A stretch of 64,000 nucleotides of DNA from Salipaludibacillus daqingensis (lineage in GTDB: Bacteria > Bacillota > Bacilli > Bacillales > Salisediminibacteriaceae). The notes under the pieces are model-generated. The model was not told where the DNA came from, searched no databases, and worked only from the letters and a program-made list of their open reading frames with translations. The translations under genes and the position numbers were made by a program. Within the stretch, counting starts at the first letter, position 1. The number at the start of each line of letters is the position of its first letter. Below are positions 24,530 to 50,791 of this stretch, one piece after another. The stretch is from positions 25,616-89,615 of the forward strand of contig NZ_JARZHF010000013.1 in assembly GCF_029891575.1 (NCBI RefSeq). Direction: 5' to 3'.

Positions 24530-24830
24530 GATGCGCAGGGACGGTTCGGGACTGCTGAAAAAGTCAATTTACCAATATTAAAATGCATGATAATCCAATT
24601 TGACTTATTACAGAGGTAGTTGATGAGACTGGAGCAAGCGAGACTCCTGCGGAAAAGGAAGTCAGTCAAGACCCTGCAGGGAAAGCCCGAAGCGGCTTGA
24701 CGACTTCTCCGCGGAAAGCGAGTTTGCGCAGGGCTCGTCAACCTCTTTATGCGGCTCACCTTATAATTTTAATAACGTTTCTGAAAATATAACACTTTTT
24801 CACTGGTCTCGGACGGTTCTCGTTCGGCAT
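24530..24830. repeat. REP-like unit interrupted by a 263-bp element
   Basis: The left part ends in GGACGGTTC (24539-24547). The same nine bases recur at 24811-24819 and continue TCGTTCGGCA. Removing the insert rebuilds a REP-like unit of the family seen throughout the right part of the window. Confidence 0.8.
24548..24810. mobile_element. 263-bp MITE-like element, copy 1
   Basis: Non-coding element with imperfect terminal inverted repeats (left GGGACTGCTGAAAAAGT; the right end, read inward on the other strand, begins GAGACCAGTGAAAAAGT), flanked by the 9-bp direct repeat GGACGGTTC. The centre is GC-rich and forms a hairpin (GGAAGTC-GTCAAG with CTTGAC-GACTTC). The copy at 50512 has the same length and roughly 90 percent identity. 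No transposase; it must be moved by an enzyme encoded elsewhere. Confidence 0.82.
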
Positions 24831-27448: not shown

Positions 27449-29563
27449 ATGGATCATTTGCAGCAAGAACAAAGTCCACGAGCGATGGAGACGATTTGTA
27501 GTTTTTGTGGAACGGGTTGCGGTTTAACCGTAAAGGTGGAAGATGATAAAATTTCGAAAGTCGTCGGCACGAAAGCAAATGCTTCTAGCCATGGAGAAAC
27601 GTGCGTGAAAGGTTCGATGGGCTGGAGGTATCTTTATAGCGATAAACGAATCAAACACCCTTGGATTCGAAAAAATGGGGAGCTTGTTCCAGGAACGTGG
27701 GAGGAAGCACTAGCAGTTATTGCAGATAAATTTAATGGATTGAAAGAAAAACATGGACCGGATTCATTAGGGTGTTTCAGTTCATCACGATCTTCCAATG
27801 AGTTGAATTATTTAGCAGCGAAATTTATGAGGACAGTCATCGGAACGAATAATATTGATAGCTGCAATCGAACCTGACACGCACCAAGTGTCACCAGTTT
27901 GGTGGCTGTATTCGGTACAGGAGCGACAACAAATTCTTATGATGAAATGGAAAATACCGATGTCCTTATTGCTTGGGGAAGCAATACGCAAGAATGTCAC
28001 CCGATCATATTTAATCATATTAGAAGGGGAATTAAAAATAATGGAACGAAGATGATCGTTATCGATCCGAGAAAAATTGATCAAACGAAATTAGCAGAAA
28101 AATGGCTGCCAGTTCGAGTAGGAGCTGATATTGCATTAGCCAATTCTATGGCCCAAGTGATCATTGAAGAAGAATTGTATGACGAGGAATTTGTTTCACG
28201 AGCGACAGAACATTTCAACCAATATAAAGAATGTGTGAAAGAGTATCCACCGGAAGTTGCCGAGGGAATCACAGGTGTTCCGGCAGAGGATATCCGCGAA
28301 GTGGCGAGGATGTATGCAAAAGCAGATAAAGCAATCATTAACTGGACCCTCGGTATTACAGAACACCACAATGGGACGGAGAATGTATTCGCTCTCATCA
28401 ACTTAGCTCTATTAACGGGGCATATCGGTAAATATGGTTCAGGTTTAAATCCTTTACGCGGTCAAAATAACGTGCAAGGTGGAGGAGATATGGGAGCCTT
28501 GCCGAATCGCTTAACTGGCGGTTGGGATTATGATGACCCGAAAGCTCTGGAACTTTTTAAAAACGTGTGGGGAGTTCCGGTCCCTGAAACAAAGGGAAAA
28601 CACCAGACGGAAATGTTAGCTGCAATGGAACAAAAGGAGATCAAGTCACTCTATATTATCGGAGAAAATCCTGTTCAGTCAGATGCTGATGGGCATCATA
28701 TCCAGAAGTTGTTTAATGACTTGGAGTTTCTAGTAGTTCAAGATATTTTAATGACAAAAACGGCGCAAATGGCCGATGTGGTTTTGCCTGCAGCAGCGAG
28801 TTGGGCTGAAAGTGATGGAACAGTGACGAACTCAGAGCGTCGTGTGCAACGGGTTCGATCAATCGTTGCCCCGCCAGGCGAAGCACGTCACGACCATGAA
28901 ATTCTTCAGGATATAGCGAATGCGATGGGACTTGATTGGAACTATCAGTCGGCGGGTGAGATATGGGACGAAGTGAGGTTGTTATCACCGAATTTTGCAG
29001 GAATTAGCTATGACCGTTTGGAAAAAGAAGGGGGGATTCAGTGGCCATGTCCGGATGAATCTCATCCAGGAACAGGTTTTCTTCACGATAGACTTTGGGA
29101 AAAGAATGTCACGAAAAAAGTGCCGTTTCATCCGACAAATTATCAAGCTCCCGTGGAAATGCCGGATAATGATTATCCGTTCCAGTTGACAACCGGAAGA
29201 CGTCTGTCTTTTTATAACACAGGGGTACAAACGCAAGATTATAAAAAAATCAAAGACAATGAAGAATTTCTTGAAATTTCCCAAGAGGATGCGGATGAAC
29301 TAGGGTTTGAAAATGGGGATATGGCAAGGATTATTTCTAGAAGGGGCCATGTTACGGCCAAAGTTAAAATTAGTAAAAAGCTATATAAAGGACTGTTATT
29401 TATGACCTTCCACTTCCCAGATCAAACCGATACGAACTTGTTAACGATTAACGCAACCGATCCACTCGCTGGAACTGCAGAATTCAAAGCATGTGCCGTA
29501 AAAATAGAACGAGCAGACCGGAAACAGCGGGAAAGTTCCCCAGTTTCTGCCCATGGAGATTGA
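27449..29563 (+). CDS. fdhF: Formate dehydrogenase catalytic subunit, predicted selenoprotein (TGA = selenocysteine 143)
   Basis: A single frame of 704 residues, interrupted only by TGA at 27875-27877. The N-terminus binds [4Fe-4S] through CSFCGTGC and GETCVKG. Around the TGA it reads NNIDSCNRT-U-HAPSV, matching NVDCCARV-U-HGPSV of E. coli FdhF (U140), where selenocysteine binds molybdenum. The molybdopterin-guanine-dinucleotide fold follows with RGQNNVQGGGDMGALP, VVQDILMTKTAQMADVVLP and the C-terminal LTTGRRLSFYNTG region. Oxidises formate to CO2 with a bis-MGD cofactor. B. subtilis homologues have cysteine here and carry an N-terminal ferredoxin extension that this protein lacks. A hairpin follows the TGA. 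If TGA is not recoded, the gene is dead. Ribosome site GAGAGGAGAGG. Confidence 0.88.
27890..27906 (+). promoter_or_regulatory. Candidate SECIS hairpin of formate dehydrogenase
   Basis: GTCACC pairs with GGTGGC (one G-T), with loop AGTTT (or GTT if A-T closes). The loop begins 18 nt after the TGA, within the distance used by bacterial SelB-dependent SECIS elements, and contains the G-U that SelB contacts in E. coli. Confidence 0.6.
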
Positions 29564-47669: not shown

Positions 47670-47731
47670 TTTTGATCAGATCAATGCCACAATATTAGTA
47701 GATTTGATTAATTAAGTAGGGGGGAATGGTT

Positions 47732-49906
47732 ATGACGAAAAAAGGTTATGTGAAAGTTGGGGAACTTCAAGTTGCGGAAGAACTATATGAATTTATTCAG
47801 TCAGAGGCGTTACCGGGTAGTCAAGTGGAGGGGAAACATTTTTGGTCTGAGTTAGATCGATTGATTCATGATTTAACTCCGGAAAACAAAGCTTTGTTGC
47901 AACGTCGTGATGAAATACAAATGGCCATCGACACTTGGCATAAAGAACACAAGGACAGTTTTAATGAGGACACGTATCATGCGTTTTTACAAGAGATTGG
48001 ATATGTAGAACCTGACGTAGAAGATTTCCATATTACAACCGATGGAGTAGATGAAGAAATTACGTTTCAAGCAGGACCTCAGCTTGTTGTTCCAGTAAAT
48101 AATGCTCGATATGCAATAAATGCCGCTAATTCTCGGTGGGGAAGTTTGTACGACGCACTTTATGGCACAGACGTGATCTCGGAAGAAAATGGCGCTACGC
48201 GAGAAGGAAGTTACAATCCTATTCGTGGAGACAAAGTGGTGTCGTTTGCCAAAGACTTTCTAGATCAAGCCATTCCTTTAGCGAATGCTTCTCATAAAAA
48301 TGTCGTGGAATATAAGTTAGATGATGGAAAATTAACGGTCACATTGGAAGATGGAAGGAAGACGGTTCTTGATGATGAATCGAAATTCGTTGGTTACAAC
48401 GGCGATCTAGAAAGAATAGAAGCTATATTACTGAAAAATAACCGACTGCATGTAGAGATTCAAATCGATCGAGATCATCCGATAGGAAAAACAGATAAAG
48501 CAGGCGTGAAAGATATTCTAATGGAAGCTGCCTTGACAACAATAATGGATTGTGAAGATTCAGTCGCAGCTGTCGATGCGGAAGATAAAGTTCTCGTTTA
48601 CCGAAACTGGTTAGAGTTGATGACAGGCGACCTCTCGGTTACGTTTAAAAAAGGAAACAAATCGGTTGAACGGAAACTGAATCCAAATCGAGTATACAAA
48701 ACAATCGAAGGCAAAGAGCGAACGCTGTCAGGACGGTCACTTATGTTTGTTAGAAACGTCGGTCATTTGATGACGAATAATGCCATTTTAGATAAAGGTG
48801 GCGCAGAAGTTTTTGAAGGGATATTGGATACGGTATTTACGAGTTTGTTAGCAAAACATACGCTTTTAGGAAATGGGCAATATCAGAACTCTTCTGAAGG
48901 TTCGGTTTACATTGTGAAACCGAAAATGCACGGATCGAAAGAAGTGGCTTTTGCGAATAAACTGTTTAATCGAGTGGAAGATCTTCTTGGTTTGAATCGT
49001 TACACGTTGAAAATTGGAGTCATGGACGAAGAAAGACGAACGAGTTTGAACTTACTAGCATGCATTCGTGAAGTTAAAGATCGAATCGTATTTATTAATA
49101 CAGGCTTCTTAGATCGAACGGGAGATGAAATTCATACGTCGATGGAAGCAGGGGCAATGATTCGAAAAAATGAGATGAAATCATCCTCATGGTTGCAAGC
49201 TTATGAAAACTTGAATGTCACAACAGGTCTCGCAGCAGGGTTTCTAAATAGAGCTCAAATCGGTAAAGGGATGTGGGCCATGCCTGAATTGATGAACGAC
49301 ATGGTTCAGCAAAAACGAGGTCAATTGGAAGCAGGTGCGAATACGGCTTGGGTTCCATCACCGACAGCTGCCACGCTTCATGCGTTGCATTATCATGAGG
49401 TTGATATACCAGAAATCCAAACGACGATGAGTAAAGAAACAAAAAATGATCGACAAGATATGTTGGAGATTCCGGTTTCATCCGATTCCAAATGGAGTGA
49501 TGAAGAAATACAACAGGAATTAGACAACAATGCTCAAGGGATTCTCGGTTACGTGGTCCGTTGGGTGGAACAAGGCGTTGGCTGTTCCAAAGTTCCAGAT
49601 ATAAATGATGTGGCACTGATGGAAGACCGTGCCACGTTAAGAATATCTAGTCAACATATGGCTAATTGGCTATTCCACGGGATATGCACGGAAGACCAAG
49701 TGAAAGAAACGATGGAACGAATGGCCAAAGTCGTCGACGAACAAAATGCGGACGATCCAAATTACGACCCAATGGCAAATGACTATCATAATTCTGTTGC
49801 ATTCCAAGCAGCTTGCGAACTCGTTTTCAAAGGCACGATTCAACCTAGTGGATACACAGAACCTATCTTACACCGTCGTAGATTAGAGTATAAAGCAAAA
49901 CTCTAA
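47732..49906 (+). CDS. glcB: Malate synthase G
   Basis: 724 residues from the ATG at 47732 behind AGGGGGGAAT. It condenses glyoxylate with acetyl-CoA to malate. Recognised by overall length and by [15 protein letters not shown] in the catalytic barrel, [31 protein letters not shown] and the C-terminal [19 protein letters not shown]. An isocitrate lyase gene is not adjacent, which is usual for the G isoform that serves glycolate use. The next gene, 45 bases on, may share the transcript. Confidence 0.95.
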
Positions 49907-49951
49907 AGCGGTTAGGTAAAAAAACAGAGAAGTGTTGGAGGGATCAAAAAC

Positions 49952-50389
49952 ATGGCAGACTTTCATCAGCTTTTAAATAGTATTTTCATGTGTGGAGAAC
50001 AAGAAGTGCAGTCTATTATTAATGCAAAAAAGATTAAATATGTTGTTGATCTCCGAGCAGAAGCAAATGAAAGTATTGCAAAAGATGAAAGCACGGAATG
50101 GGTTCATATTCCATTAGAGGATGGAATACCAGATCAATCAAGAAATCTCCGGAAAGCAATTTCTTATGTTGCAAAAGCTTACCTTGAAGGGAAAGAGACG
50201 ATTCTTCATTGAAAAGGTGGGGAAAACCGCACAGGTAGTGTGGCAATTGGTGTACTACTAGAACTAGGATTAGCGTCAACAATCGAAGAAGCTGAATCGA
50301 TGGTACAAGAGATTAGGCCACAGATTTCGATTAATGATAATTTTTATCGAGATATATTAGAGATCTACCCAGATTCAAAGAGTGAGTAG
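49952..50389 (+). CDS. Tyrosine/dual-specificity phosphatase, candidate selenoprotein (TGA at the catalytic cysteine)
   Basis: A 145-residue frame, ATG behind TTGGAGGGATC, interrupted only by TGA at 50210-50212 (residue 87), then 58 sense codons to TAG. The first half has the DSP-like N-terminus (LLNSIFMCGEQEVQSIINAK, VVDLRAEAN, WVHIPLEDG). Around the TGA it reads ETILH-U-KGGENRTGSVAIG, which fits the P-loop HCx5R(S/T)G of Cys-based phosphatases with the nucleophilic Cys replaced by TGA. The C-terminal helices (TIEEAESMVQEIRPQISIND) are intact. A hairpin with loop AGGTA starts 20 nt later. Either selenocysteine is the nucleophile or this is a pseudogene with a single lesion in the catalytic codon. 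Cotranscription with glcB is likely. Confidence 0.72.
50227..50243 (+). promoter_or_regulatory. Candidate SECIS hairpin in the phosphatase gene
   Basis: CCGCAC pairs with GTGTGG (one G-T) around the 5-nt loop AGGTA. The loop starts 20 nt after the TGA; its AGGU start is the same as in the E. coli fdhF SECIS loop. Same loop length and nearly the same distance as the formate dehydrogenase hairpin. Confidence 0.6.
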
Positions 50390-50423
50390 GGACAAACCTG
50401 TGGAAAATACGATAATGAATAAG

Positions 50424-50461
50424 AAAGTGGGTGACATTGCTTACAATGTCACCCACTTTTT
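50424..50461 (+). terminator. Strong terminator after the phosphatase
   Basis: AAAGTGGGTGACATTG pairs perfectly with CAATGTCACCCACTTT, followed by TT. Confidence 0.9.
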
Positions 50462-50493: not shown

Positions 50494-50791
50494 GCCGAAC
50501 GAGAACCGTCCGAGACTGCTGAAAAAGTCAATTCACCTAAATTAGAATGCATAATAATCCAATTTAACTTATTGCAGAGGTAGTTGATGAGACTGGAGCA
50601 AGCGAGACTCCTGCGGAAAAGGAAGTCAGTCAAGACCCTACAGGACAAAGTCCGAAGCGGCTTGACGACTTCTCCGCGGAAAGCGAGTTTGCGCAGGGAT
50701 CATCAAGCCTTTATGCATCTCAACTTATAATTTTAATAACGTTTCTGAAAATATAACACTTTTTTACTGGTCTCGAACCGTCCCCGTTCAT
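50494..50791. repeat. REP-like unit interrupted by a 263-bp element
   Basis: TGCCGAACGAGAACCGTCC ends at 50511. GAACCGTCC recurs at 50775-50783 and continues CCGTTCATCA. Joined, they form a normal REP-like unit. Confidence 0.8.
50512..50774. mobile_element. 263-bp MITE-like element, copy 2
   Basis: Same length and plus-strand orientation as copy 1 at 24548. Ends GAGACTGCTGAAAAAGT and, read inward from the right, GAGACCAGTAAAAAAGT. Flanked by the 9-bp direct repeat GAACCGTCC, which is the complement of the target used by copy 1. No coding capacity. Confidence 0.85.

What the first reader, a model, noticed from the sequence alone, without database searches (positions are those of the whole stretch)
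49952..50389. Tyrosine/dual-specificity phosphatase whose catalytic cysteine codon is TGA: candidate selenocysteine phosphatase
Seen directly: a 146-codon frame (stop included) with one interruption, TGA at 50210, exactly where the HCx5R loop needs its nucleophilic Cys (ILH-TGA-KGGENRTG). The remaining 58 codons form the intact end of the domain and stop normally. A hairpin CCGCAC-AGGTA-GTGTGG starts 14 nt after the TGA, its loop 20 nt after. Known: bacterial SECIS elements lie just downstream of the UGA with a short loop containing GU; the E. coli fdhF loop begins AGGU. Inference: selenocysteine is inserted, which would give a phosphatase with a stronger, redox-sensitive nucleophile. I do not know of a described selenocysteine PTP/DSP family. 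The alternative is a Cys-to-stop mutation in a dying gene.
Basis: partly seen in the sequence, partly recalled or inferred. Interest (0 to 1): 0.95.

Follow-up and report, generated by a model that had tools for sequence, protein, structure and literature searches.

The report
Selenocysteine enzyme on phosphatase scaffold
A Bacillus-group bacterium and 25 relatives carry a phosphatase-like gene with the codon UGA exactly at the catalytic cysteine, followed in 25 of the 26 by the same RNA hairpin, so the gene is predicted to make a selenium-containing enzyme of a kind absent from a 2026 catalogue of bacterial selenoproteins, one that likely helps cells handle toxic oxyanions such as chromate.

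Summary
The selenocysteine reading holds. The genome has selA, selB, selC and a UGA-containing selD, plus two UGA-containing formate dehydrogenases, one in this window. Twenty-six distinct Bacilli loci have TGA at this codon; 25 keep the hairpin at the identical site against 0 of 57 Cys-codon homologues, and one stem pair switches A-U to G-C in concert. All 26 genomes have selB or selA. A 2026 inventory of 119 prokaryotic selenoprotein families lists no DSP or tyrosine phosphatase. Function (inferred): perhaps not plain dephosphorylation. Chromate transporter ChrA lies near 11 of 26 Sec loci; ars genes lie near 24 of 30 Cys loci examined and 0 of 26 Sec loci; 8 of 24 Sec proteins lack the general-acid Asp; 19 of 24 have Cys14, found in 0 of 57 Cys proteins. 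Best guess: a selenium-based oxyanion-processing enzyme with a Sec/Cys redox pair. The window's own copy keeps Asp57 and has no ChrA neighbour. No experiment was seen.

The parts
49952..50389 (+). Gene of a DSP-fold protein of 145 residues if the TGA is read through
50210..50212 (+). In-frame TGA at the HCx5R nucleophile position (residue 87), predicted Sec codon
   Evidence: same codon in 26 distinct loci
50227..50243 (+). bSECIS-like hairpin CCGCAC-AGGTA-GTGTGG, loop 50233-50237
   Evidence: conserved at the identical site in 25 of 26 TGA loci, 0 of 57 Cys loci; helix found by RNAalifold; -8.4 kcal/mol
49937..49942 (+). Shine-Dalgarno-like GGAGGG
   Evidence: sequence; role inferred
49991..49993 (+). 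Codon of Cys14, the only Cys codon of the gene; candidate resolving Cys
   Evidence: Cys in 19 of 24 Sec proteins, 0 of 57 Cys proteins; role inferred
50120..50122 (+). Codon of Asp57, at the DSP general-acid position, kept in this copy
   Evidence: general-acid assignment from knowledge of DSPs, not from a call
50422..50461 (+). Terminator-like hairpin downstream of the gene
47726..49906 (+). Upstream 726-aa gene (recognised by eye as malate synthase G), 45 nt before the DSP gene; possible co-transcription
   Evidence: name not tested by a search

Best explanation
This is a gene of a DSP-fold enzyme in which UGA at the catalytic-cysteine codon is predicted to be read as selenocysteine, directed by a bSECIS-like hairpin 14 nt downstream and likely by the genome's own selA, selB, selC and selD products. 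Shown from sequence: the shared UGA, the hairpin and its restriction to UGA loci, the sel genes and the gene neighbourhoods. Predicted: the DSP fold. Inferred: SelB with Sec-tRNA decodes this UGA and gives a full protein of about 16 kDa with the loop HUx5R. The function I think most likely, also inferred, is handling of a tetrahedral oxyanion, chromate being the best candidate: the P-loop would bind the oxyanion, the selenolate would attack it or pass electrons to it, and Cys14 would resolve the selenium as a Se-S bond that thioredoxin or a small thiol would reduce. This would resemble what ArsC and Acr2 arsenate reductases do with cysteine on other PTP-like scaffolds (recalled). My confidence is about 0.96 for selenocysteine insertion and about 0.4 for the oxyanion function. 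The window's own protein keeps Asp57 and could still be a phosphatase. The figure below is for the selenoprotein claim with the function left open.
For: Full Sec machinery on contig C12 of the same genome: selA, tRNA-Sec with anticodon UCA, selB, selD with its own UGA; two UGA-containing formate dehydrogenases, one in the window. TGA at the same codon in 26 distinct loci, hairpin in 25 of 26 against 0 of 57 Cys loci; synonymous draws give such a stem in 2.0% of cases on average. A-U to G-C double change in 7 sequences at one pair. SelB in 18 of 18 TGA genomes against 37 of 61 others; SelA above 300 bits in 10 of 10 against 34 of 60. Downstream part more conserved than upstream part. For the oxyanion function: ChrA near 11 of 26 Sec loci against 2 of 34 Cys contexts, ars genes near 24 of 30 Cys loci, non-acidic residue 57 in 8 of 24 Sec proteins against 0 of 57, Cys14 in 19 of 24 against 0 of 57.
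Against: No experimental evidence. Single-sequence folding is not significant, and in a strict hairpin-only energy sum the window's own hairpin is -7.3, just short of the published -7.5 limit. Covariation rests on one pair; three of seven pairs never vary. The Sec loci are one lineage or nearly so, so counts across them are not independent and the p values ignore this. For the oxyanion function: 15 of 26 Sec loci, the window's among them, have no ChrA nearby; 5 of 24 Sec proteins lack Cys14; 16 of 24, the window's among them, keep Asp57; the Cys14-Sec87 distance was not measured.
Confidence: 0.93

Rival explanations
1. Selenocysteine is inserted and the enzyme is an ordinary DSP-type phosphatase whose selenolate makes it a stronger, redox-switchable nucleophile.
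For: DSP fold and Pfam DSPc match; H86, G89, G90, R93 and G95 of the loop kept in 24 of 24 Sec proteins aligned, Asp57 kept in 16 of 24 including the window's; no ChrA near 15 of 26 Sec loci.
Against: Asp57 is Asn, Ser or Ala in 8 of 24 Sec proteins; Cys14 is Sec-specific; ChrA lies near 11 of 26 Sec loci and ars genes near 24 of 30 Cys relatives.
Confidence: 0.4
2. The gene is dying: a Cys codon mutated to TGA and the 86-codon fragment is all that is made.
For: The public protein set stores only the 86-residue fragment (P0002). Real broken copies exist in relatives: L020, L021, L107.
Against: TGA shared by 26 species; 24 keep the frame open after it; downstream identity exceeds upstream identity; hairpin restricted to TGA loci.
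Confidence: 0.02
3. The TGA is read through by another route (a suppressor tRNA or near-cognate Trp or Cys insertion) or is a regulated stop, and the hairpin is a pausing element, not a SECIS.
For: Not excluded by sequence alone; some short product should arise if decoding is incomplete.
Against: The 26 TGA genomes all have selB (18) or selA (8). The hairpin fits the published bSECIS limits for loop size, loop G, spacing and stem. FdhA and SelD of the same genome carry UGA at their known Sec positions.
Confidence: 0.02

Closest known systems
Dual-specificity phosphatases (Pfam PF00782 DSPc; human DUSP10, DUSP18)
   Different: UGA in place of the Cys codon; Cys14 at a site that is Gly in 56 of 57 Cys relatives; general acid lost in 8 of 24 Sec relatives.
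Cys-type bacterial DSPs of arsenic (ars) operons, the sister lineage
   Same: 31-43% identity to the window protein over the whole length; same loop.
   Different: Cys codon, no hairpin, acidic residue 57 in 57 of 57, no Cys14, ars neighbours in 24 of 30.
Known selenoproteins with oxyanion- or sulfur-handling loops: rhodanese-like forms (PF00581), arsenate reductase (TIGR00014), arsenate reductase-like (NF041106)
   Same: Sec in an active-site motif of an enzyme whose Cys form works on sulfur or arsenate; listed in PMC13188914 Table 1.
   Different: Different domain families; none of the 119 listed families is a DSP or tyrosine phosphatase.
PTP-like arsenate reductases (ArsC of the LMW-PTP type; Acr2 of the Cdc25 type), recalled
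   Same: What it may work like: a P-loop nucleophile on an oxyanion, resolved by a second Cys.
   Different: Other scaffolds, Cys not Sec; activity here untested.

Membership tests
Bacterial selenoprotein gene | In-frame UGA aligned with a conserved Cys of homologues | tested here: met
   26 TGA loci aligned with 57 TGC/TGT loci
Bacterial selenoprotein gene | bSECIS: loop of 3-9 nt, stem of 4-16 pairs, G in the first two loop positions, loop 16-37 nt after UGA, MFE at most -7.5 | tested here: met
   Loop AGGUA, 6 pairs, 20 nt, -8.4 by RNAfold; -7.3 in a hairpin-only sum, just short. Limits from PMC13188914
Bacterial selenoprotein gene | selA, selB, selC and selD in the genome | tested here: met
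Bacterial selenoprotein gene | Selenium in the protein (75Se label or mass spectrometry) | not testable with these tools
   needs an experiment
A selenoprotein family already modelled by NCBIfam | Match to a selenoprotein model | tested here: not met
   Only PRK12361 (35.7 of 505 bits) and purD (13.4 of 288 bits) at E up to 0.1, both far under cut-off
DSP phosphatase (DSPc) | Fold and Pfam match | tested here: met
DSP phosphatase (DSPc) | Nucleophilic Cys in HCx5R | tested here: not met
   TGA at this codon; Sec predicted
DSP phosphatase (DSPc) | General-acid Asp | tested here: met
   Asp57 in the window copy; Asn, Ser or Ala in 8 of 24 Sec relatives
DSP phosphatase (DSPc) | Phosphatase activity | not testable with these tools
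   needs an assay
PTP-fold oxyanion reductase (like ArsC or Acr2 in action) | Resolving Cys near the nucleophile | tested here: inconclusive
   Cys14 present and Sec-specific; distance not measured
PTP-fold oxyanion reductase (like ArsC or Acr2 in action) | Genetic linkage to oxyanion export or resistance genes | tested here: inconclusive
   ChrA near 11 of 26 Sec loci, none near the window's copy; ars near 24 of 30 Cys relatives
PTP-fold oxyanion reductase (like ArsC or Acr2 in action) | Reductase activity | not testable with these tools
   needs an assay

The most novel reading that the evidence does not exclude
A new class of selenoenzyme: a DSP scaffold turned into a selenium-based oxyanion reductase, with one Sec in the P-loop and one resolving Cys at the end of strand 1, working with the chromate exporter ChrA, while its Cys sister lineage was recruited into ars operons as a further, independent PTP-type arsenic enzyme. 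It would be the first selenocysteine known in a CX5R phosphatase-fold active site.
Probability: 0.35. Interest if true: 0.95.

Novelty: new variant of a known kind. Interest (0 to 1): 0.93.

Why it matters
The majority of characterised selenoproteins have a thioredoxin-like fold (PMC13188914). A selenocysteine as the nucleophile of an HCx5R P-loop would carry selenium chemistry into the PTP superfamily. It would allow a natural test of what Sec gains over Cys there, since the Sec lineage has close Cys sisters, in two genomes (G182, G017) side by side with a Sec copy. It would tie bacterial Sec use to chromate and arsenic stress, and it would correct annotations that stop at the UGA and show an 86-residue fragment, as the public set does for this window (P0002).

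Tried and rejected
Pseudogene: rejected on 26 shared TGA loci, hairpin restriction and downstream conservation. Chance hairpin: single-sequence tests are weak; only the comparison decides. Rfam on the window at gathering thresholds gave no match. Arsenic link for the Sec form: looked for and not found in 26 contexts (ArsR-like hits alone in two of them were not counted). Phage origin: tblastn of the phage collection found no match. Plasmids: 71 records matched, under 60% identity in each; only 4 of the 71 were opened, all four annotated as uninterrupted genes, and their active-site codons were not read. A scan of named genomes with the single protein found nothing, one of its patterns spelling the codon as Cys; an alignment with that residue masked worked. 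The protein search returned the window's own 86-residue fragment and seven Cys-type proteins. Second relatives in G563, G573 and G592 (L108-L110) showed no readable motif in my script and are not in the counts. Literature: ten searches of an open-access library listed no paper whose title or shown abstract describes a selenocysteine phosphatase or this DSP in ars or chr clusters; listed papers were mostly not opened (PMC12655506, the one paper with both selenocysteine and HCX5R, was seen in the listing only), and subscription papers are not in the library, so absence from print is not proven. The Cys14-Sec87 distance was wanted, but no model coordinates reach the script box. A viral fold search was started and not collected.

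Full report

The genome can make selenocysteine. One 20-kb stretch of contig C12 holds selA (455.5 bits), selD, selB (633 aa) and a tRNA-Sec with anticodon UCA (61.2 bits against a gathering score of 47). SelD itself has an in-frame UGA (KKAGUGCK). Two formate dehydrogenase alpha genes have one TGA each. One lies inside this window at 27449-29563, TGA at 27875 in NRT-U-HAP, followed by a bSECIS-like hairpin with the loop 18-19 nt away. The nearest named relative in these data is Salipaludibacillus keqinensis: G007, labelled same genus, has a contig of the same length as NZ_PDOD01000001.1.

The family. Protein searches found matches in 19 of 60 relatives, 76 of 397 genomes of the order, 51 of 398 of the class and 7 of 398 of the phylum (the sets overlap); a scan of named genomes gave 26 loci. 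After removing two duplicates (L103, L097), one of each pair of overlapping fetches, and loci without a readable motif (L055, L107-L110), I had 83 loci: 26 with TGA and 57 with TGC or TGT. L057, an actinobacterial Cys relative, and L100-L102 were left out of the counts, as were hits for which no locus was fetched. Of the 26, L020 and L021 have broken frames, and L033 looks frameshifted at its start. Eleven TGA loci are in named species: Bacillus sp. MRMR6, Halalkalibacter wakoensis, H. nanhaiisediminis and H. akibai, Evansella clarkii and E. halocellulosilytica, Alkalicoccus saliphilus, Halalkalibacterium ligniniphilum, Mesobacillus campisalis, Salipaludibacillus keqinensis and Sinobaca qinghaiensis. 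In the phylum sample the three hits outside the class have no internal stop.

The hairpin. At the identical offset, a stem of 6 or 7 pairs closing a 5-nt loop is present in 25 of 26 TGA loci; in the 57 Cys loci the stem there is 0 pairs in 55, 1 in one and 2 in one. The exception, L021, has a broken frame. The 25 loops have G at position 2. Arg93 is CGC in 26 of 26 TGA loci, while the Cys loci use all six Arg codons. Drawing synonymous codons at random gives a stem of at least 6 pairs in 2.0% of draws on average and 4.2% at most (25 loci). The sixth pair is A-U in 17, G-C in 7 and G-U in 1, linking residue 94 (Thr or Ala) to the third base of Ser96; the G-C loci (L007, L012, L041, L084, L085-L087) fall in several parts of the tree. 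RNAalifold on 25 sequences finds this one helix. In the pair count 98.9% of cells pair; 0 of 500 shuffles reach the observed percentage, number of doubly changed cells or covariation score, but the two measures that count pairs and pair types do not exceed the shuffles (487 of 500 reach them), and three of seven pairs never vary. A looser bSECIS scan at -7.5 kcal/mol passes 25 of 26 TGA loci, L021 among them by a different hairpin, and 3 of 57 Cys loci; the one TGA locus that misses is the window's own, at -7.3, while RNAfold gives its hairpin -8.4.

Machinery across species. SelB is above its cut-off in 18 of 18 TGA genomes and 37 of 61 others (p 5e-4). In a second set of 70 genomes, a SelA match above 300 bits is present in 10 of 10 TGA genomes and 34 of 60 others (p 0.006). 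Two of those ten (G000, and G185, which holds the Sinobaca duplicate) repeat the first set, so 26 of 26 distinct TGA genomes have selB (18) or selA (8). Half of the Cys-only genomes of the first set (9 of 18) also have SelB. These p values ignore relatedness.

Descent. On a tree of 81 proteins the Sec/Cys label needs two changes, against a mean of 21 on shuffled labels. Fifty-six of the 57 Cys rows form one supported group; the other, L016, is a long branch of unsure place in a genome (G017) that also has a Sec copy (L022). The root is not known, so the direction of change is not shown.

Function. Two contexts emerged. (i) Cys forms: ArsA or thioredoxin-type ArsC is encoded in the fetched flanks of 24 of 30 Cys loci (30 of the 57 were examined), and the four plasmid loci opened lie in ars operons; those supplied the query proteins and are left out of the test. 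(ii) Sec forms: 0 of 26 have ArsA, ArsC or ArsD nearby, but 11 of 26 have the chromate transporter ChrA, against 2 of 34 Cys contexts (p 0.001). Pfam PF02417 confirms four of these 11 directly, and one search lists PF02417 hits at eight of them. In the contexts of L018, L019, L020, L021 and L058 ChrA is the next gene downstream on the same strand; elsewhere its order and strand differ. ChrA genes exist somewhere in 20 of 20 Sec genomes searched, so presence is not informative but adjacency is. A partial second TGA copy in G484 (L107) also lies beside a ChrA. Flank lengths differ between loci (about 3 or 6 kb, less at contig ends), and the other neighbours scanned were mixed.

Residues. Position 14 is Cys in 19 of 24 Sec proteins (Gly 3, Ser 2) and 0 of 57 Cys proteins; in 18 of the 19 it is the only Cys of the protein. 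Position 57 is Asp in 16 of 24 Sec proteins (Asn 5, Ser 2, Ala 1) and Asp or Glu in 57 of 57 Cys proteins. That it is the general acid is taken from knowledge of DSPs. On the predicted topology Cys14 lies in strand 11-15 and residue 87 ends strand 83-87, so both may lie on one edge of the sheet; their distance was not measured. From these points I infer an oxyanion-processing, probably reducing, selenoenzyme. For this window's own copy, which keeps Asp57 and has no ChrA neighbour, the phosphatase reading stays about as likely.

Novelty. The 2026 review PMC13188914 (abstract, SECIS section and the whole selenoprotein section with Table 1 read) lists 119 families and subfamilies, none a DSP or tyrosine phosphatase. 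PMC2398784 was seen in passages; its phosphatase is a PP2C-type domain fused to peroxiredoxin. PMC10298544 passages treat Cys phosphatases. PMC6205960, a survey of arsenic genes, has no occurrence of the word phosphatase in its main text. NCBIfam release 20 gave no selenoprotein model.

Noticed in passing
window 27449-29563, TGA at 27875-27877: A formate dehydrogenase alpha gene with in-frame TGA at the NRT-U-HAP site and a bSECIS-like hairpin lies in the same window: a built-in positive control for UGA recoding.
   Followed up: yes
L031 (G000:C12:66001-86000): selA, selD, selB and tRNA-Sec lie together; selD itself has an in-frame UGA (KKAGUGCK) and so is missed at its start by ordinary ORF calling.
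   Followed up: yes
L143, L146-L148, L151-L157, L159-L162 and nine named loci; plasmid loci L120-L123: The Cys-type DSP is a recurrent member of arsenic operons (ArsA, ArsC, ArsD, sometimes TrxB and an Fe-S protein): 24 of 30 loci examined. I found no paper on this in the searches run.
   Followed up: partly
L127, L129-L131, L133-L135, L137, L033, L037, L045: Chromate transporter ChrA near the Sec-type DSP in 11 of 26 loci, in varied orders and strands.
   Followed up: partly
L033, L037, L127: A small protein family shared by these three ChrA-linked Sec loci; the L033 member matches the PadR regulator family.
   Followed up: no
L016 and L022 (both genome G017): One genome holds a Sec-type copy and a very divergent Cys-type copy that falls outside the main Cys group: possible Sec-to-Cys reversal or long-branch effect.
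   Followed up: partly
L020, L021, L107: Broken TGA copies in relatives; L021 has lost both frame and hairpin, L020 keeps the hairpin.
   Followed up: partly
P0002 (public protein set): The window's gene is stored publicly as an 86-residue fragment ending at the TGA.
   Followed up: no
window 24631-24722 and 50595-50687: Two copies of an interspersed repeat that share exact 22-nt and 29-nt blocks, one just downstream of this gene.
   Followed up: no
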